This document shows, one piece after another, positions 29,777 through 41,854 of a DNA stretch of 64,000 bases. Below the pieces are notes generated by a model that saw only the letters and a program-made list of their open reading frames with translations, had not been told where the DNA came from and did not search any database. The stretch's first letter is position 1. Each line of letters starts with the position of its first letter. This DNA is from Yersinia thracica (lineage in GTDB: Bacteria > Pseudomonadota > Gammaproteobacteria > Enterobacterales > Enterobacteriaceae): the NCBI RefSeq assembly GCF_902170565.1, contig NZ_CABHXX010000082.1, forward strand, positions 17,691 through 81,690, given 5' to 3'. The position numbers were made by a program, and so were the translations under genes.

Positions 29777-32804
<3,028 letters not shown>

Positions 32805-32836
32805 TTACTGTGCTTTAGCTTTGATTAAAGTTGATT

Positions 32837-32862
32837 GAAAAACCCGCTGCGGCGGGTTTTTT
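32837..32862 (+). terminator. Rho-independent terminator after eno
   Basis: AAACCCGC and GCGGGTTT form a stem around 32839-32859, with a short loop and T run. Together with the CRP-like site below it is the only feature of the 345-bp gap 32805-33149, which is otherwise A/T-rich and without a gene. Confidence 0.9.
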
Positions 32863-32968
32863 CATACCTGGAGTGTAGCGAGAGAGTCATCTGGGTAATT
32901 ATAACTACTTTAAATTTATATAATCCCGACATGTTATATAAATGTTTCTTATATGTTGATTTCAATGA

Positions 32969-32984
32969 TGTGATGCTTGTCACG
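32969..32984 (+). promoter_or_regulatory. CRP-like binding site upstream of the SQR-DUF1641-MGL operon
   Basis: TGTGATGCTTGTCACG matches the CRP consensus TGTGA-N6-TCACA at all but the last base. Its centre (32976.5) is about 45-60 bases before possible -10 boxes TACAAT (33016) and TAATAT (33022). The site suggests that the operon is activated when preferred sugars are absent. Confidence 0.65.
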
Positions 32985-33149
32985 AAATATTGTTTGCAGT
33001 CTAATTTTTTATTACTACAATTAATATCTCATGGATTTGATTAATTAGAATTCCTTATTTATTCTGATGCGACTAATGGCTATTCATAATTGATGCAGAC
33101 ATTATAGATATAGGAGGGTTTTTATCTTGGTCTAATGGGGTAAAGTGAC

Positions 33150-34340
33150 ATGCTCAATAGAATTGTTATTGTCGGTGGTGGCACTGGCGGTACTATTTTA
33201 GCTAATTTATTAGCAGCTAAATTGCATCGGGATATTCTTGAAAGGAAAGTTGAATTAATACTTATTTCTGACTCTCCGGTTCACTACTATAAACCCGCTT
33301 TTATGTATGTCGCTTTTAATTTATTTTATAAACAAGAGTTGGAACGTTCACAACAAAGTTTATTACGGCCAGAAGTTACTTTTATTGTTGATAAAGCGGA
33401 GGATTTCGATTTATCTAAAAGAGAAATATCATGTCGTAGTGGGAAAAAATATAATTATGACTTTTTAGTGTTTGCGACAGGATGTGTTCCCCGGCCAGAT
33501 AGAATTGAGGGCCTGGCTGAAGCCGGCGATCATTTTTATCAATATGCCGCTTCTCATCAATTAGCTGATAAATTAGCGAAAATAGAGAAAGGCCGTATTT
33601 TTATCACCGTCTCCTTCCCGCAAACACCCAATGTACCCCATCAATGTGGCATTGCTCCGATAGAAACTACACTGATGTTGGATGACTATCTCCGCCGTCG
33701 TGGAGTGCGTAATACCATTGAAATTGTTTATACCTATCCCACGGTTTCTCAGCTGTTGCGTAATTGTCTTTTCTTACAAAGACCTACAGGGGAAGTTTTA
33801 CCCAATATTTTTGCCGCTAAAGGTATCAAGCACCAGCGCGGTTTTACGCTGCAAAAAATCGACCCCGATAAAAAGATTGCCTATTCCGCCGAGGGAGACG
33901 AGCAACCCTTTGATATCTTAATGAGTACTCCGCCGATTACCGCTGTGGATGCGGTGCGTAACACCGGATTGAGTGAATGGGATAACGGGGAGGGTTGGTT
34001 ACCGACTGACCACCAAACTCTGCAAGTCTATGGGCAGCCGGGGGTTTATGTTATTGGTGATACCGTTGACCTACCGATTAGCAAAGCAGGCGGTTCCTGT
34101 CATAACCAAGCGCCTGTTATTGCTGACAATATTGTCTCTGAGCTGCGCATCGGCTACCCAACCAGTCATTACGATGGAAAAGTACAAGCGCTGGCCCAAA
34201 TGGGGCTGAATGCGGGGATGCCGCTATGGTACGACTACCGCAATGATGTGATGCCAACACCACCGACCAAAGTGGGTGGAATGTTACGCAATGGTTTTAA
34301 CCGTGGCTTATATTGGGCCACTGTCCGTGGCCTGATTTAA
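33150..34340 (+). CDS. SQR-like FAD/NAD(P)-binding oxidoreductase
   Basis: A 396-residue flavoprotein of the sulfide:quinone oxidoreductase/FCC-flavoprotein group. VGGGTGG (8-14) is the FAD dinucleotide motif and VYVIGDTVDLP (about 299-309) the second FAD segment. Cys166 in VPHQCGIAPIE lines up with the first redox cysteine of SQR, and Cys112 in ATGCVPR with the third. The C-terminal redox cysteine seems absent: ALAQMG stands where SQRs have a Cys, though Cys317 lies nearby in GGSCHNQ. A polar or altered activity is therefore possible. The gene is visibly richer in A/T than its neighbours, which suggests transfer. It heads a three-gene operon with DUF1641 and MGL. Confidence 0.8.
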   Translation: MLNRIVIVGGGTGGTILANLLAAKLHRDILERKVELILISDSPVHYYKPAFMYVAFNLFYKQELERSQQSLLRPEVTFIVDKAEDFDLSKREISCRSGKKYNYDFLVFATGCVPRPDRIEGLAEAGDHFYQYAASHQLADKLAKIEKGRIFITVSFPQTPNVPHQCGIAPIETTLMLDDYLRRRGVRNTIEIVYTYPTVSQLLRNCLFLQRPTGEVLPNIFAAKGIKHQRGFTLQKIDPDKKIAYSAEGDEQPFDILMSTPPITAVDAVRNTGLSEWDNGEGWLPTDHQTLQVYGQPGVYVIGDTVDLPISKAGGSCHNQAPVIADNIVSELRIGYPTSHYDGKVQALAQMGLNAGMPLWYDYRNDVMPTPPTKVGGMLRNGFNRGLYWATVRGLI

Positions 34341-34351
34341 TAAGAGAAAAT

Positions 34352-34756
34352 ATGAGCGAACATCAATCAGATGAAAGTCATGTTGATAAAGAAATAATGC
34401 CTGAAGCCGATTTCACGCAATTGCTTAATAAATTACAGCCCTTATTAGCGGGAGGGCGATTAAATAACGCAGTAGATATATTGTCATTGTTATCTGATGT
34501 GGTTGATATTGCAGATAATGCATTGGTCGAGAAACTGGCTGGTGTATTCGAAGGCATTGTTGCCGTTGGTTGGGAGAGTGGTAGTGCATTAAGGATGGCG
34601 AATACTGAGCTGCGACTTAATCAAGAGGCAGTTAATTACCGTTCATTATATTCTTTATTTCGCGACCGAGACACATTAGTCGGTATTACGTTGTTATTAC
34701 GGACGTTACAGATAATTGGTCAAAGAATTAATGCTACAAAAATATCGCCACCTTAA
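34352..34756 (+). CDS. DUF1641 family protein
   Basis: A 134-residue, mainly helical protein without signal peptide. The C-terminal part, LYSLFRDRDTLVGITLLLRTLQIIGQRI, has the pattern of DUF1641 (relatives read LLRDPEVQRGLGFLLALL). DUF1641 genes often stand beside SQR-like flavoproteins, so it is probably a partner or membrane adaptor of the preceding protein; that role is inferred. The ATG at 34352 follows AAGAG and lies 11 bases after the upstream stop, so the two are co-transcribed. A longer frame from 34313 overlaps the previous gene and is unlikely. Confidence 0.78.
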   Translation: MSEHQSDESHVDKEIMPEADFTQLLNKLQPLLAGGRLNNAVDILSLLSDVVDIADNALVEKLAGVFEGIVAVGWESGSALRMANTELRLNQEAVNYRSLYSLFRDRDTLVGITLLLRTLQIIGQRINATKISPP

Positions 34757-34786
34757 AGTTATAAGCTACTTTATGAGGATATAGAG

Positions 34787-36013
34787 ATGTCGATGCAATC
34801 AGCAAAGTCTTTTTCTACTCAGGCTATTCATTATGGTTATCACCCTCAAGAGCATTTAGGCGCATTATCGCCACCAGTTTATATGAGCTCAACTTTCACT
34901 TTCCCCAGTGCGGAATACGGTGGGGCTTGTTTTGCCGGAACAGAGAAAGGTTATTTTTACTCAAGAATCAGTAACCCAACATTAGATTTATTGGAGCGCC
35001 GTATTGCCATACTGGAAGGCGGTGAGGCGGCAGTCTCTTTTTCATCCGGGATGGGGGCTATTACGGCTTGCTGTTGGACGTTTCTTAAACCGGGTGATGA
35101 AATCATTGTCGACCAAACCATTTATGGCTGCACTTATGCTTATTTTCATCATGGATTGGCGCGATTTGGGGTGAAAATTACCCACGTAGATTTAACTGAT
35201 TCGCGAAAACTGGCTGCGGCCATTTCAGAACAAACCAGGTTGGTTTATTGCGAAACTCCAGCTAATCCGAATATGCGAATTGTAGATATCGCGGCGCTAA
35301 GCCAAATTACCCGTGCTAATGACGCGCTCTTTATCGTGGATAACACCTACTGCACCCCCTATTTGCAAACACCTTTGGCGCTAGGTGCGGATATTGTCGT
35401 GCATTCTGCGACCAAATATTTGGGCGGGCACGGTGATTTGTTAGCGGGATTAGTGGTAACGCGCAAAAATCTGGCAGACCAAATTCGCCTGGTGGGGTTA
35501 AAAGATATGAATGGCGCGGTATTATCTGCGCAGGATGCAGCACTGATTTTACGCGGGATGAAAACACTGGCTGTACGTATGGAAAGGCACTGCGCTAGCG
35601 CCCAAACTATTGCTGAAAAGTTATCTCAGCATCCATTGGTTGAGCAGATTTATTATCCCGGATTACCAAACTTTCCCCAGCATGAGTTGGTCAAGCGGCA
35701 AATGACAGGGGCTGGCGGCATGATTGCTTTTGAACTTCGTGGCGGCATGGCGGCGGGTATCGCCTTTCTCAATGCGCTACAACTCATTTATCGTGCGGTC
35801 AGTTTGGGCGACTGTGAAACATTAGCGCAGCACCCGGCCAGCATGACGCATTCCTCCTATACTCCGGAAGAGCGGCGTCATCATTTAATTAGCGATGGGT
35901 TAATTCGACTATCGGTGGGGTTAGAGGATGTGGAGGATCTATTAAATGATTTACTTCAGGCATTAGAGGTCGCAAAGACAATCCATGGAAATGCCGAGTT
36001 AATCGCTGATTGA
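34787..36013 (+). CDS. megL: Methionine gamma-lyase
   Basis: A PLP enzyme that cleaves methionine to methanethiol, ammonia and 2-oxobutyrate; such enzymes also release sulfide from homocysteine or cysteine. The PLP lysine is in HSATKYLGGHGD. Two features separate it from cystathionine gamma-synthase and lyase: the active-site Cys in IYGCTYAYFHHG (Cys116 of the Pseudomonas enzyme) and GLKDMNGAVLS (Lys240-Asp241). The closing block HPASMTHSSYTPEERRHH is conserved. It has 408 residues, close to the Pseudomonas and Citrobacter enzymes. GAGG precedes the ATG, 30 bases after DUF1641. Confidence 0.9.
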   Translation: MSMQSAKSFSTQAIHYGYHPQEHLGALSPPVYMSSTFTFPSAEYGGACFAGTEKGYFYSRISNPTLDLLERRIAILEGGEAAVSFSSGMGAITACCWTFLKPGDEIIVDQTIYGCTYAYFHHGLARFGVKITHVDLTDSRKLAAAISEQTRLVYCETPANPNMRIVDIAALSQITRANDALFIVDNTYCTPYLQTPLALGADIVVHSATKYLGGHGDLLAGLVVTRKNLADQIRLVGLKDMNGAVLSAQDAALILRGMKTLAVRMERHCASAQTIAEKLSQHPLVEQIYYPGLPNFPQHELVKRQMTGAGGMIAFELRGGMAAGIAFLNALQLIYRAVSLGDCETLAQHPASMTHSSYTPEERRHHLISDGLIRLSVGLEDVEDLLNDLLQALEVAKTIHGNAELIAD

Positions 36014-36051
36014 GAGGGGAAACCTTATCGCTTACTTTTCCAATTTAACCG

Positions 36052-36079
36052 GGTTAATCTGCTATTTTGCAGATTAACC
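36052..36079 (+). terminator. Hairpin after the methionine gamma-lyase gene
   Basis: A perfect 11-bp stem, GGTTAATCTGC (36052-36062) and GCAGATTAACC (36069-36079), with a six-base loop lies 38 bases after the stop. No T run follows, so it is a terminator-like or mRNA-stabilising hairpin. Confidence 0.55.
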
Positions 36080-36242
36080 TATTGTTATCGATTACTTATT
36101 CCTGCGAGATTAATCCGAATCTCGTCACAATGCCCCACCTGACTCACATCTCTAACACCACCATCGTGCAGATCATTCACCGCCCGTTATCATTAATCAT
36201 TACCCGAATGATTCGGCAATAATGCATAAAGGAAGATAAACA

Positions 36243-36767
36243 ATGAAATTGAAATACTTACTGTTACCGGCGATGCTTTTCTCCGGCAGTTTATTGGCGG
36301 CAGATGTTACCGTCACAATGAATGAAGCGCTGCCAACGGGCAATGGTAAGGCGCTGGGTACAGTTACCCTGACCGAAACCCCTTATGGATTATTGTTCAC
36401 GCCAAATCTGACTGGGCTGGTTGCGGGGGTTCATGGTTTCCATCTCCATGAAAATCCACGTTGTGCGCCGGGGCAGAAAGACGGTAAAGCGGTGCCCGCA
36501 TTGGCTGCGGGCGGCCATTTCGACCCGCAAAAAACCGGGACGCACCTTGGGCCTTATAGTGATAAAGGGCATTTGGGTGACCTGCCGGGGCTGGTGGTCA
36601 ATGCCGATGGCACTGCGACCTACCAAGTATTGGCTCCACGTCTGAAATCGTTATCAGAGGTGAAACAACATGCGCTAATGATTCATGCTGGTGGTGATAA
36701 CTATGCCGACCATCCAATGCCTTTGGGTGGTGGCGGTGCGCGAATGGCTTGTGGTGTCATCGAGTAA
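36243..36767 (+). CDS. sodC: Periplasmic Cu/Zn superoxide dismutase
   Basis: SodC removes superoxide in the periplasm. A signal peptide, residues 1-20 (MKLKYLLLPAMLFSGSLLA), is followed by the bacterial Cu/Zn SOD fold. Copper and zinc ligands are in HGFHLHENPRC, AGGHFDPQKTGTHLGPYSDKGHLGD and ALMIHAGGDNY; the disulfide partners are Cys in NPRCAP and near the end in RMACGVIE. The length of 174 residues is standard. GGAAG precedes the ATG. In E. coli this gene is elsewhere; here it is inserted between eno and queE with the MGL operon. Confidence 0.95.
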   Translation: MKLKYLLLPAMLFSGSLLAADVTVTMNEALPTGNGKALGTVTLTETPYGLLFTPNLTGLVAGVHGFHLHENPRCAPGQKDGKAVPALAAGGHFDPQKTGTHLGPYSDKGHLGDLPGLVVNADGTATYQVLAPRLKSLSEVKQHALMIHAGGDNYADHPMPLGGGGARMACGVIE

Positions 36768-36870
36768 CGGCCTGATACAAACAAACTGGTAGCCTCGGTG
36801 TTACCCGTTTGGTCACAGCCAGGGAATCTGCGATAATCGCGCATTGGTTTGAATCACGATAGAGATGCTA

Positions 36871-37542
36871 ATGCAGTACCCGATTAATGAAATGTTCCAG
36901 ACCTTGCAGGGCGAGGGTTACTTCACCGGCGTACCGGCGATTTTCGTGCGTTTGCAGGGCTGCCCAGTAGGTTGTAGCTGGTGCGACACCAAACATACCT
37001 GGGAAAAAGAGGCCGATCGGGAAGTCGATATGCAGCGCATCATGGTAAAAACTGCGGAAAGTGATCTCTGGGGAACAGCCAGCGAGCAGCAGTTATTGGA
37101 TATTTTCCGTCAACAAGGATATACCGCCCGCCATGTAGTGATAACTGGGGGGGAGCCAGCGATTTACGATTTGCTTCCTTTAACATCTCAGTTGGAGCAA
37201 GCCGGTTACAGTTGCCAAATTGAAACTAGCGGGACTCATGAAGTGCAGTGTTCGGCGACCACGTGGGTGACGGTTTCGCCAAAAGTGAATATGCGCGGCG
37301 GCCTAAAAGTATTACCGCAGGCATTACAGCGCGCAGATGAAATTAAGCACCCGGTGGGGCGTTTACGGGATATCGAAGCACTGGAAGCACTGCTGGTAAC
37401 ACTGACGGATGACAAAAAGCGGATTATTGCTTTGCAGCCGATTAGTCAGAAAGAAGAAGCCACTAAGCTCTGCATTGAAACCTGTATCGCCAAGAATTGG
37501 CGGCTCTCCATGCAGACGCATAAATACCTAAACATAGCTTAA
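36871..37542 (+). CDS. queE: 7-carboxy-7-deazaguanine synthase
   Basis: A radical-SAM enzyme of queuosine biosynthesis that forms the 7-deazapurine ring from the product of QueD. The cluster motif CPVGCSWC (CxxxCxxC) is at residues 31-38. GEGYFTGVPAIFVRLQG precedes it and TGGEPAIYD binds SAM. The start MQYPINEMF at 36871 matches E. coli and gives 223 residues; an ATG at 36865 would add two. It is convergent with queD, the enzyme of the preceding step. gluQ at the left edge acts on the finished queuosine. Confidence 0.96.
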   Translation: MQYPINEMFQTLQGEGYFTGVPAIFVRLQGCPVGCSWCDTKHTWEKEADREVDMQRIMVKTAESDLWGTASEQQLLDIFRQQGYTARHVVITGGEPAIYDLLPLTSQLEQAGYSCQIETSGTHEVQCSATTWVTVSPKVNMRGGLKVLPQALQRADEIKHPVGRLRDIEALEALLVTLTDDKKRIIALQPISQKEEATKLCIETCIAKNWRLSMQTHKYLNIA

Positions 37543-38321: not shown

Positions 38322-40124
38322 ATGACGACTCAGGTTCCTCCTACTTCTTTACTCCCGCTATCGCCGGAGCAGTTGGCCCGCTTGCAAGCCGCGGTTGGTG
38401 AGTTTTCTCCCACCCAAATGGCATGGTTATCTGGCTACTTCTGGGGCATGGTTAACCAACAACCTGGCGCGGTTGTTGCTCCTGCTGTGGCCGCCCCAGC
38501 AGCGGCGATCACCCTGATTTCTGCTTCCCAAACCGGCAATGCGCGGCGTTTGGCTGAACAGTTACGCGACGACCTTTTAGCCGCCAAACTTAACGTCAAT
38601 CTGGTTAATGCCGGTGATTATAAGTTTAAACAGATAGCCCAAGAACGTTTGCTGGTGATTGTTGCTTCCACCCAAGGCGAAGGCGAACCCGCCGAAGAGG
38701 CTGTGGCGCTGCATAAGTTCTTATTCTCTAAAAAAGCGCCTAAATTGCCAGAAACCGCCTTTGCGGTGTTTGGCTTAGGCGATACTTCCTATGAGCATTT
38801 TTGTCAGGCGGGCAAAGATTTCGACAACAAATTGGCTGAGTTGGGCGCGCAGCGGTTAGTTGAAAGAGTGGATGCTGATGTGGAATATCAAGGATCAGCC
38901 CAACAGTGGCGTCAGCAGGTTGTGGCGGCCTTGCAAGCCAGAGTGCCAGCCCAATCAACAGCGGCGGCGGCGGTCACACAAAGTGGTGTGGTCGATGAAA
39001 TGACCTCCAGCCCTTATAGCAAAACCGCGCCACTTACCGCGCAGTTATCGGTACAGCAAAAAGTCACGGGGCGTCATTCTGAAAAAGATGTGCGCCACAT
39101 TGAAATTGATTTAGGGGACTCCGGGCTGCGCTATCAGCCGGGTGATGCTCTGGGGGTCTGGTTTGATAATGACCCGGCACTGGTCGATGAGTTGCTGGCG
39201 CTATTGTGGCTTAAAGGTGATGAGCCGGTCAGTATTGATGGGCAGAATATATTGGTGTCACAAGCGCTGCGTAGCCATCTTGAACTGACGCAAAATACCA
39301 CGGTGATTGTCGATAAATACGCCGCACTGTCCCGTGATGAGAAATTGATTGCTTTGCTGGCGGATAAACCGGCGCTGCAACATTACGCCAAGAACACCCC
39401 GATTGTGGATATGGTTCGTCAGGCCCCCTCTGATCTGAATGCCGATCAATTGGTTGCACTGTTGCGGCCACTAACTCCTCGCCTCTATTCCATTGCCTCC
39501 TCACAAGCTGAAACTGAGAATGAAGTGCATATTACCGTCGGTGTGGTGCGCTATGAGATTGATGGCCATCCACGTGCTGGCGGTGCTTCGGGGTATCTGG
39601 CGGACAGACTGGCAGTGGATGACGATATTCGCATCTTTATCGAACATAACGATAACTTCCGTTTACCGGCTAACCCAGAAACTCCAGTGATAATGATTGG
39701 GCCGGGAACCGGCATCGCGCCTTTCCGCGCCTTTATGCAGCAGCGCGAAGCCGATGGAGCCACGGGCAAGAACTGGCTACTTTTCGGTAACCCACATTTC
39801 ACTGAAGATTTTCTCTATCAGGTTGAATGGCAACGTTATGTCAAAGACGGCTTGCTGACCCGCATTGATCTGGCCTGGTCGCGCGATCAAGCCCATAAAA
39901 TATATGTACAAGACAAACTGCGCGAGCAAGGTGCAGAACTGTGGGACTGGATCCAACAAGGTGCCCACATTTACGTCTGTGGCGATGCCAACCGCATGGC
40001 TAAAGATGTTGAGCAAGTTTTACTGGACGTGGTGGCTCTGCACGGCGCGATGGATGCTGAGCAGGCTGATGAATATTTAAGTGAGCTGCGCCTGGCGCGC
40101 CGTTATCAGCGGGATGTGTACTGA
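38322..40124 (+). CDS. cysJ: Sulfite reductase, flavoprotein alpha subunit
   Basis: CysJ passes electrons from NADPH through FAD and FMN to CysI. The FMN-binding flavodoxin domain (about 60-200) contains [17 protein letters not shown]; the FAD/NADPH domain contains [16 protein letters not shown]-type FMN contact region (here [10 protein letters not shown]), and [16 protein letters not shown]; the C-terminus RRYQRDVY is conserved. The start [13 protein letters not shown] at 38322 gives 600 residues, close to E. coli's 599; an in-frame ATG at 38283 is not supported. It overlaps cysI by one base. Confidence 0.97.
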
Positions 40125-41854
40125 TGAATGAAAAACACCCAGGGCCATTGGTTGTTGCTGGAAAGCTTTCCGACGGCGAGCGCATGAAGTCACAGAGCAA
40201 TTTCCTCCGCGGGACGATTGCAGAGGATTTGAATGACGGGCTGACCGGCGGTTTCAACGGCGATAACTTCCTACTGATTCGCTTCCACGGAATGTATCAG
40301 CAAGATGACCGCGATATCCGCGCTGAACGGACGGAACAGAAGCTTGAACCTCGTCATGCCATGATGCTGCGCTGCCGTTTGCCCGGCGGGATTATTACTC
40401 CGCAACAGTGGCTAGGTATTGATAAATTTGCTGCGGATAACACCTTATACGGCAGCATCCGTATCACTAACCGCCAGACATTCCAGTTTCATGGCATTCT
40501 GAAAGGAAATGTGAAACCGGCTCACCAGTTGCTCAATCAATTGGGCTTGGATGCATTGGCGACGGCAAATGATGTTAACCGTAACGTACTCTGTACCTCA
40601 AACCCAGTGGAATCAGTGCTCCATCAGGAAGCCTACGAATGGGCGAAGAAGATTTCTGAACATTTGTTACCGCGCACTCGTGCTTATGCTGAAATCTGGC
40701 TGGATGCAGAAAAAGTCGCGACCACCGATGAAGAACCGATCCTCGGTGCGACTTATTTACCGCGCAAATTTAAAACTACAGTCGTCATTCCGCCGCAAAA
40801 TGATGTTGATCTCCATGCCAATGACCTCAACTTTGTTGCGGTGGCGGAGAAAGGCAAGTTGGTCGGTTTTAACGTGTTGGTTGGCGGTGGGTTATCCATT
40901 GCTCACGGTGATAAGAATACTTACCCACGTAAAGCCAGTGAATTCGGCTATATCCCGTTACAACACACTTTGGCGATTGCAGAGGCGGTGGTGACCACTC
41001 AGCGTGACTGGGGCAACCGCACTGATCGTAAGAATGCTAAAACCAAATATACGCTAGAGCGCGTCGGTGTTGATGTGTTTAAGGCCGAAGTTGAAAAGCG
41101 CGCGGGTGTGAGTTTCTCGGCTATCAAACCTTATCAATTTACTGGCCGCGGTGATCGCATCGGTTGGGTGAAAGGTATTGATAAAAAGTGGCATTTGACC
41201 CTATTTATCGAAAATGGCCGTTTGCTGGATTACCCCGGTCGCAGTCTGAAAACCGGTGTGGCAGAAATTGCCAAAATCCATCAGGGCGATTTCCGTTTAA
41301 CCGCTAATCAGAACCTGATTGTGGCGGGGGTGCCGGAAAAAGACAAAGCGCGCATTGAAGCATTGGCCCGTGAGCACGGCTTGATGGATGACAATGTCAG
41401 CCCGCAGCGTGAAAACTCGATGGCCTGTGTTTCGTTCCCAACTTGCCCATTGGCAATGGCTGAAGCTGAACGTTTCTTGCCGGAATTTGTCACCCGCATT
41501 GAAGGTATTTTACAGCAACATGGTTTGCCCGATGAACATATTGTGATGCGAGTCACCGGCTGTCCGAATGGTTGCGGCCGTGCTTTGCTGGCTGAAGTGG
41601 GGCTGGTGGGCAAAGCCATGGGGCGCTATAACCTGCATCTGGGCGGCAACCGTGAAGGCACGCGGATACCGCGCATGTACCGTGAAAACATTACCGAAGA
41701 TGAAATTCTGGCGATTACCGACCAGTTAGTCGGGCGCTGGGCTAAGGAACGCCATACTGATGAGGGTTTCGGTGATTTTGTTATTCGTGTCGGTGTTATT
41801 GCTCCGGTGATAGATTCAGCCCGCGACTTTTATGATGTTCAGGAGGCGGTGTGA
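40124..41854 (+). CDS. cysI: Sulfite reductase, hemoprotein beta subunit
   Basis: CysI reduces sulfite to sulfide by six electrons at a siroheme coupled to a 4Fe-4S cluster. The four cluster cysteines are in [18 protein letters not shown] and [10 protein letters not shown], near residues 430-490. Substrate-contact arginines and lysines lie in [15 protein letters not shown]. The length of 576 residues is close to E. coli's 570. Its siroheme comes from CysG, encoded 2.9 kb downstream. The start shares one base with the cysJ stop and the end overlaps cysH by four bases. Confidence 0.97.

What the first reader, a model, noticed from the sequence alone, without database searches (positions are those of the whole stretch)
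32969..36079. CRP-linked operon joining an SQR-like flavoprotein, DUF1641 and methionine gamma-lyase
The three genes are tightly spaced (11 and 30 bp), start after a near-perfect CRP-like site and end at a perfect 11-bp hairpin. MGL should release methanethiol or sulfide; the flavoprotein belongs to a family that passes electrons from sulfide to quinone; DUF1641 is a common neighbour of such proteins. Together they suggest a catabolic route in which methionine or cysteine is broken down under poor-carbon conditions and the toxic sulfur product is oxidised at the membrane. This is opposite in direction to the cysJIH and cysGDNC operons a few kb away. The A/T-rich flavoprotein gene suggests acquisition. 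I know of no description of this trio as one pathway.
Basis: partly seen in the sequence, partly recalled or inferred. Interest (0 to 1): 0.75.

Follow-up and report, generated by a model that had tools for sequence, protein, structure and literature searches.

The report
Methionine-lyase operon with rewired sulfide oxidase
Some Yersinia, Serratia, Providencia, Proteus and Moellerella carry three adjacent genes in the same order: one for a predicted methionine-splitting enzyme that would release a toxic sulfur gas, and two for a flavoprotein related to sulfide oxidases, with one cysteine of the known catalytic pair replaced and new invariant cysteines elsewhere, and its constant small partner, which together likely oxidise that gas and would pass its electrons to the respiratory chain.

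Summary
The trio is real and conserved. A sulfide:quinone-oxidoreductase-like (SQR-like) flavoprotein, a DUF1641-related protein and a methionine gamma-lyase (MGL) lie 11 and 30 bp apart. In 81 loci (best 80 of 199 plus the window) a DUF1641-type gene follows the flavoprotein in 81; a full trio is in 27, all in Yersinia, Serratia, Providencia, Proteus and Moellerella. In 246 family genomes all 9 close MGLs lie beside a flavoprotein gene (one decayed). New points: (1) the human SQR Cys379 position is Ala in all 80 fetched loci, where Cys112, Cys206 and Cys317 are invariant; 28 of 28 other SQR-family proteins keep Cys379 and none has Cys317. (2) DUF1641-linked enzymes have a trimmed tail (32-33 residues against 41 or more). 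Given the published role of ForE (a DUF1641 protein) in menaquinone reduction, DUF1641 is likely a quinone-coupling subunit. Not supported: recent acquisition (shared chromosomal neighbourhood; the A/T dip is in all 14 orthologues sampled) and general CRP control (site found only in the Y. enterocolitica group). The substrate, sulfide or methanethiol, is untested. A new variant of a known kind.

The parts
32969..32984 (+). CRP-like site TGTGA-N6-TCACG, 165 bp before the flavoprotein start codon
   Evidence: 9 of 10 fixed bases; also 9 of 10, with a varying spacer, in three other Y. enterocolitica-group sequences (L003/L024, L004, L005); absent from Y. nurmii. Binding untested.
32993..33021 (+). 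weak promoter-like match (TTTGCA-17-TACAAT)
   Evidence: 9 of 12; 7 such sites found in the region against 8.9 expected in shuffles, so no more than chance
33150..34340 (+). SQR-like FAD flavoprotein, 396 aa, with Cys112, Cys166, Cys206, Cys317 and Ala347
34352..34756 (+). DUF1641-related protein, 134 aa, likely quinone-coupling partner
   Evidence: no direct Pfam hit; structure model poor
34787..36013 (+). predicted methionine gamma-lyase, 408 aa
   Evidence: NF005695 706 bits (cut-off 666), TIGR01328 585 (549.7); 582 bits to the 1gc0 chain
36052..36079 (+). 11-bp perfect hairpin after MGL, no T-run
   Evidence: DNA covering it also aligns in two trio-less Yersinia intervals, G006 and G012

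Best explanation
A three-gene unit, kept in the same order in Yersinia, Serratia, Providencia, Proteus and Moellerella, encodes a predicted methionine gamma-lyase whose thiol product (methanethiol, or sulfide) would be oxidised by an SQR-like flavoprotein that, with its constant DUF1641-type partner, likely passes the electrons to quinone. Shown here by sequence: gene order, co-occurrence, MGL family membership, SQR relationship, changed cysteine set, short tail, constant DUF1641-type neighbour. Inferred: MGL splits methionine to 2-oxobutyrate, ammonia and methanethiol (or cysteine or homocysteine to sulfide); the thiol reacts at Cys166 beside FAD; Cys317 takes over the resolving role of human Cys379; FADH2 is reoxidised by quinone near the DUF1641 protein, which would act for the flavoprotein as ForE does for the formate dehydrogenase ForC. 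Net effect: sulfur amino acids become usable carbon and nitrogen, and the respiratory poison is removed with some energy gain.
For: Trio in 27 of 81 loci and DUF1641-type gene after the flavoprotein in 81 of 81. In 246 family genomes: flavoprotein in 10, close MGL in 9, both and adjacent in 8, the ninth MGL beside a decayed flavoprotein gene (Fisher p 1.4e-12, at E cut-offs that I chose). Distances of the three proteins correlate, r 0.91-0.94 over 27 loci. MGL family cut-offs passed. SQR fold. Short tail exactly where a DUF1641-type gene is linked: 15 of 15 clade rows and 7 of 7 sister rows against 0 of 21 others. ForE1 needed for quinone reduction by ForC1 (PMC8808070, passages). DUF1641-flavoprotein/SQR neighbours raised together in Sulfobacillus (PMC7409299, passages) and Ignicoccus (PMC3149612, passage). 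Human SQR takes methanethiol as sulfur acceptor (PMC12510033, passages).
Against: No activity has been measured on any of these proteins in the sources I saw. The second catalytic cysteine of human SQR is Ala here. 54 of 81 loci lack a full-length linked MGL, and of 16 such genomes tested 10 have no MGL match at E<=1e-100 anywhere. In G225 MGL is intact beside a decayed flavoprotein gene, and in G020 the flavoprotein is intact with a deleted MGL, so the halves can live apart. The short tail and DUF1641 link may be one ancestral event. Human SQR is also reversibly inhibited by methanethiol.
Confidence: 0.55

Rival explanations
1. The flavoprotein is an ordinary sulfide:quinone oxidoreductase with a relocated cysteine pair; MGL lies beside it only as a cytosolic sulfide source (from cysteine or homocysteine) and methanethiol is not a substrate.
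For: Closest folds are SQRs; the flavoprotein-DUF1641 pair exists without linked MGL in 54 of 81 loci, so its substrate cannot depend on MGL alone; the seven sister enzymes with DUF1641-like neighbours keep the SQR cysteine.
Against: The position of human Cys379 is Ala in 80 of 80 loci, so the known trisulfide route is not possible as such; close MGLs in the family are found only at this locus.
Confidence: 0.3
2. The flavoprotein acts on another donor (a low-molecular-weight thiol, a persulfide, or NADH-like electrons) and MGL is linked only because both serve amino-acid use under poor-carbon conditions.
For: In 14 of 80 fetched loci, all Pseudomonas, a SAM-methyltransferase-type gene follows instead of MGL (Pfam on one example); Foldseek also ranks type II NADH dehydrogenases with TM about 0.7.
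Confidence: 0.12
3. The trio is a recent acquisition in Yersinia, as the first reader suggested from the A/T-rich flavoprotein gene.
For: Only 5 of 25 Yersinia genomes hold the full-length flavoprotein gene; 11 trio-less genomes have an eno-sodC interval of only 256-452 bp, with DNA of both edges recognisable in 9 of the 11.
Against: The unit follows eno in Serratia too and lies before queE-queD-cysJ in Providencia and Proteus; broken copies at the same place in G009 and a deleted MGL in G020 show loss; short MGL- and DUF1641-like stretches in two trio-less intervals hint at remnants; the 5' GC dip is in all 14 sequences sampled.
Confidence: 0.12

Closest known systems
Human mitochondrial SQR (SQOR; 6oi5, 8dhk)
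   Different: Cys379 position is Ala347; extra invariant Cys112, Cys206, Cys317; constant DUF1641-type partner
NCBIfam NF049943, type III SQR, selenoprotein subtype
   Same: Best NCBIfam match of the flavoprotein, 252 bits
   Different: Far below the 525-bit cut-off; the one protein above the cut-off in 398 genomes (L104) keeps the Cys379 position and has no DUF1641-type gene in the stretch held
ForCE formate:menaquinone oxidoreductase of Bacillus subtilis (ForE is a DUF1641-type protein)
   Same: A small DUF1641-type protein encoded beside a redox enzyme; ForE1 is needed for quinone reduction (PMC8808070, passages)
   Different: The catalytic subunit there is a molybdenum formate dehydrogenase, here an FAD protein; ForE sequences were not compared with the window protein
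Pseudomonas putida MGL (1gc0)
   Same: 582 bits over residues 7-395; YGC, TKY and LKDM motifs kept in 27 of 27 trio MGLs
   Different: In the P. putida genome tested (L070/G909) an MGL 65% identical to the window's exists but not within the 13 kb around the flavoprotein pair
SQR-DUF1641 neighbours of Sulfobacillus thermotolerans and flavoprotein-DUF1641 neighbours of Ignicoccus hospitalis
   Same: Adjacent locus numbers and joint increase under stress or co-culture (PMC7409299; PMC3149612)
   Different: No MGL mentioned in the passages seen; sequences not compared here
Citrobacter freundii MGL, the enterobacterial MGL known before
   Same: Same enzyme family (about 440 bits)
   Different: Less like the window protein than the P. 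putida enzyme; its gene neighbourhood was not examined here

Membership tests
Sulfide:quinone oxidoreductase | Two-dinucleotide-binding flavoprotein fold of SQR | tested here: met
   (predicted model)
Sulfide:quinone oxidoreductase | Catalytic Cys pair (human Cys201 and Cys379) | tested here: not met
   First is Cys166, second aligns with Ala347; Ala in 80 of 80 loci and 120 of 120 listed homologues. Role of the pair from PMC12510033. Hence filed as SQR-like only.
Sulfide:quinone oxidoreductase | C-terminal membrane/quinone helices | tested here: inconclusive
   One terminal helix, 374-392; tail of 33 residues against 41-218 in 21 unlinked relatives. Most SQRs have two such helices, type VI one (PMC9666304, passages)
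Sulfide:quinone oxidoreductase | Sulfide-dependent quinone reduction | not testable with these tools
   Needs an assay
NCBIfam NF049943 (type III SQR, seleno) | Curated score cut-off | tested here: not met
   251.8 bits against 525
Methionine gamma-lyase | Curated score cut-offs | tested here: met
   NF005695 and TIGR01328 passed
Methionine gamma-lyase | Active-site Cys of the YGC motif and PLP lysine of the TKY motif (roles recalled) | tested here: met
   27 of 27 trio MGLs
Methionine gamma-lyase | Methanethiol release from methionine | not testable with these tools
   Needs an assay
DUF1641 (PF07849) | Pfam gathering score | tested here: not met
   The window protein has no hit at E<=0.001; orthologues L028 and L097 score 14 against 21; more distant L116 scores 45. 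Related to DUF1641 through homologues (3 of the 120 listed carry PF07849), not a scored member itself.
ForE-type quinone-coupling subunit | Needed for quinone reduction by the partner enzyme | not testable with these tools
   Analogy only
CRP regulon | TGTGA-N6-TCACA site | tested here: inconclusive
   9 of 10 in four Y. enterocolitica-group sequences; not in Y. nurmii; binding untested
MetJ regulon | Tandem met boxes | tested here: not met
   No match with up to 3 mismatches in the window (consensus recalled)

The most novel reading that the evidence does not exclude
The flavoprotein-DUF1641 pair is a methanethiol:quinone oxidoreductase: a disulfide-reductase-type active site rebuilt around Cys166 and Cys317, with a separate quinone-docking subunit in place of part of the usual membrane tail, that makes methionine breakdown by MGL respiratory and self-detoxifying. 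DUF1641 would then be a general clip-on quinone module shared by formate dehydrogenases and SQR-type enzymes in bacteria and archaea.
Probability: 0.2. Interest if true: 0.82.

Novelty: new variant of a known kind. Interest (0 to 1): 0.6.

Why it matters
Methanethiol inhibits cytochrome c oxidase (PMC10525899, passage), so a bacterium that makes it from methionine needs a way to clear it. A conserved operon joining the producing enzyme to a likely quinone-linked flavoprotein gives a direct candidate. It also offers a testable role for DUF1641, a family of unknown function that neighbours both formate dehydrogenases and SQR-type proteins, and it marks an SQR-like clade whose catalytic cysteine has been exchanged, which cautions against automatic annotation as sulfide:quinone oxidoreductase.

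Tried and rejected
DUF1641 structure: AlphaFold2 model too poor to search (pLDDT 51, pTM 0.23). DUF1641 profile against PDB sequences: nothing meaningful (best E 0.18). MetJ control: no met box. Rfam: no match at E<=0.1 in 32000-37000. FNR-like sites upstream: 8 of 10 at best, common in shuffles. Remnants of the trio in trio-less Yersinia: three protein matches of 25 bits or more in 20 intervals (two overlapping DUF1641 stretches in G006, one MGL stretch in G023) against one in 20 shuffled sets; a hint of remnants, but each is only 20-25 residues long. MGL across the class: the search failed three times and was given up. The class-level flavoprotein search matched only 2 of 274 genomes, the window's own included, too few for a test. 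A paper search for type III or selenoprotein SQR listed unrelated papers. A Mann-Whitney p printed rests on a makeshift grouping (2 made-up clade values) and is not used. No tree was built; co-inheritance rests on distance correlation only. Of the 199 confirmed loci the best 80 were kept by the tool; the other 119, more distant, were not seen. Plasmid records: 42 matched, none over 80% of the stretch; the best two are Proteus mirabilis records of about 4.1 Mb.
Full report

Conservation. Of 199 confirmed loci in named genomes the tool kept the best 80. With the window, 81 of 81 have a DUF1641-type gene directly after the flavoprotein gene: 76 by tblastn at 1e-5 and 5 by a profile search of the stretch just downstream, L046 scoring lowest (E 2.7e-14). 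The full trio, counted as an MGL match over more than 350 residues in one piece, is in 27 of 81: Yersinia 3 of 3, Serratia 7 of 9, Providencia 9 of 10, Proteus 7 of 10, Moellerella 1 of 1, and 0 in Morganella (4), Enterobacter (3), Neisseriaceae (3) and the other 38 (Pseudomonas, Achromobacter, Burkholderia, Marinimicrococcus). Among the misses L037 has a split MGL and L056 a fragment. In 14 of 80 fetched loci, all Pseudomonas, a SAM-methyltransferase-type gene lies downstream of the pair instead. In 246 genomes of the family (drawn evenly from a larger group), 10 have the flavoprotein at E<=1e-60 (one, G185, split between two frames) and 9 a close MGL at E<=1e-140; 8 have both, adjacent; Fisher p 1.4e-12. 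The ninth MGL (G225) stands beside a decayed flavoprotein gene. The two flavoprotein genomes without close MGL, G116 and G228, have a more distant one elsewhere (49-50% identity). Pairwise distances of the three proteins over the 27 trio loci correlate at 0.91-0.94, and 0 of 2000 permutations reach them. Relatives share history, so the p-value overstates independence; still, this is a co-inherited unit and not a chance array.

Old rather than new. In Serratia the unit also follows pyrG-eno; in Providencia and Proteus it lies, across a convergent amino-acid permease gene, before queE-queD-cysJ, which in Yersinia follow it after sodC (names other than the permease are recalled). Such shared placement fits an ancestral position with repeated loss. 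Of 25 Yersinia genomes 5 have the full-length flavoprotein gene and 1 (G009) broken pieces at the same place; one of the 5 (G020) has an MGL with an internal deletion. Of the 19 without it, 11 have an eno-sodC interval of only 256-452 bp, G003 has one of 1.2 kb, and in 7 eno was not within the 1.5 kb held. Those short intervals alone would also fit insertion, so loss is the likelier reading, not a proven one.

Regulation. The CRP-like site is present at 9 of 10 in four distinct Y. enterocolitica-group sequences with differing spacers. It is absent in Y. nurmii, and no match of 9 lies within 300 bp upstream in the Serratia, Proteus or Providencia loci scanned; four Providencia-type loci (L017, L043, L046, L050) have one about 360 bp upstream. 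The promoter-like match beside it is no more than chance. No met box was found. The hairpin after MGL is strong but lacks a T-run, and DNA covering it also aligns in two trio-less Yersinia intervals, so it may not belong to the operon.

A changed active site. Human SQR works through a trisulfide between Cys201 and Cys379 (PMC12510033, passages). The window protein keeps the first as Cys166, but the second aligns with Ala347 (the count of 178 residues between the two human cysteines in that alignment agrees with their numbering). Ala347 and Cys112, Cys166, Cys206, Cys317 are invariant in 80 of 80 loci and in the 120 listed homologues (963 proteins matched, and only the best 120 are listed). From a phylum-wide search with the NCBIfam type III model (59 of 398 genomes) 30 loci were fetched; two (the window itself and L116) belong to the clade. 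Of the other 28, all 28 have Cys at the 347 position, none at 317 or 206, and 1 (L104) at 112. The clade has thus exchanged one catalytic cysteine and gained others; that Cys317 takes over the resolving role is inference.

DUF1641 and the tail. Seven of those 28 form a sister group (the five aligned are 34-37% identical to the window protein). All 7 carry a DUF1641-like gene directly downstream: weakly by the first profile (E 2e-8 to 0.05), clearly by a two-step profile (E 8e-68 to 3e-18; L105, L106 and L111 had served to build it, the other four had not). Pfam gives only below-cut-off DUF1641 matches for four of the seven and none for three. None of the other 21 has such a gene within the roughly 1.5 kb held on each side. 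After the invariant Tyr363 the tail is 33 residues in 15 of 15 clade rows (the window counted twice, as itself and as L115), 32 in 7 of 7 sister rows, and 41-218 in the 21 others. In published work the DUF1641-type protein ForE1 is needed for menadione reduction by ForC1 and most likely for menaquinone binding (PMC8808070, passages), and DUF1641-SQR or DUF1641-flavoprotein neighbours rise together in Sulfobacillus (PMC7409299) and Ignicoccus (PMC3149612). Together these favour DUF1641 as a separate quinone-coupling or membrane-docking subunit. Clade and sister may share ancestry, so the short tail may reflect a single event.

Mechanism. Best reading: MGL makes methanethiol (or sulfide), and the flavoprotein-DUF1641 pair oxidises it and reduces quinone. 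Human SQR accepts methanethiol as a sulfur acceptor and is also reversibly inhibited by it, so such chemistry is near at hand. Against a methanethiol-only role: 54 of 81 loci lack a full-length linked MGL, and of 16 genomes without the linked gene 10 have no MGL match at E<=1e-100 (two of the 16, G116 and G914, look like the same genome). Sulfide therefore stays a live alternative. The steps from MGL product to quinone are all untested.

Prior art. Ten searches of an open-licence library were made. DUF1641 occurs in 9 papers there; I saw passages of five and only listings of the other four; no passage seen describes this trio. The MetJ regulon paper notes several MegL-like genes, one group with met boxes beside an oxygenase gene (PMC3228920, passages), and cites the earlier report of MGL in Enterobacteriaceae (listing in its references only). 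Subscription papers were not searched, so 'undescribed' holds only for this library and these terms.

Noticed in passing
L103:7591-8415 and 13 further Pseudomonas loci: A SAM-methyltransferase-type gene lies downstream of the flavoprotein-DUF1641 pair where Enterobacterales have MGL; whether it methylates a thiol is unknown.
   Followed up: partly
L046 (Providencia rettgeri), genome G916: MGL is missing from the trio site, but an MGL 62% identical to the window's lies elsewhere in the genome (C1:2989033-2990220), about 195 kb away if C1 is the same record.
   Followed up: no
L007 and L156 (G009); L165 (G225): Decayed flavoprotein genes: in G009 pieces at the same eno-sodC site; in G225 beside an intact MGL.
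   Followed up: partly
L005 and L135 (G020): MGL with a large internal deletion (residues of about 83-318 missing from the match) while flavoprotein and DUF1641 genes look intact.
   Followed up: partly
L111:2592-3608: A 339-residue DUF1641-like protein built of several near-identical repeats, each resembling the downstream partner of sister flavoproteins.
   Followed up: no
L104: The one protein above the NF049943 cut-off in 398 genomes carries a long C-terminal extension (218 residues after the Tyr363 position) and no DUF1641-type neighbour in the stretch held.
   Followed up: no
window 41542-41556: A second exact TGTGA-N6-TCAC match, inside a coding region (40124-41854), likely chance.
   Followed up: no
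L025-L027 (Neisseriaceae MAGs): Flavoproteins 80-81% identical to the Yersinia one, closer than those of Providencia or Proteus (70-74%), with a DUF1641-type gene but no MGL: possible transfer between Enterobacterales and Neisseriaceae.
   Followed up: no
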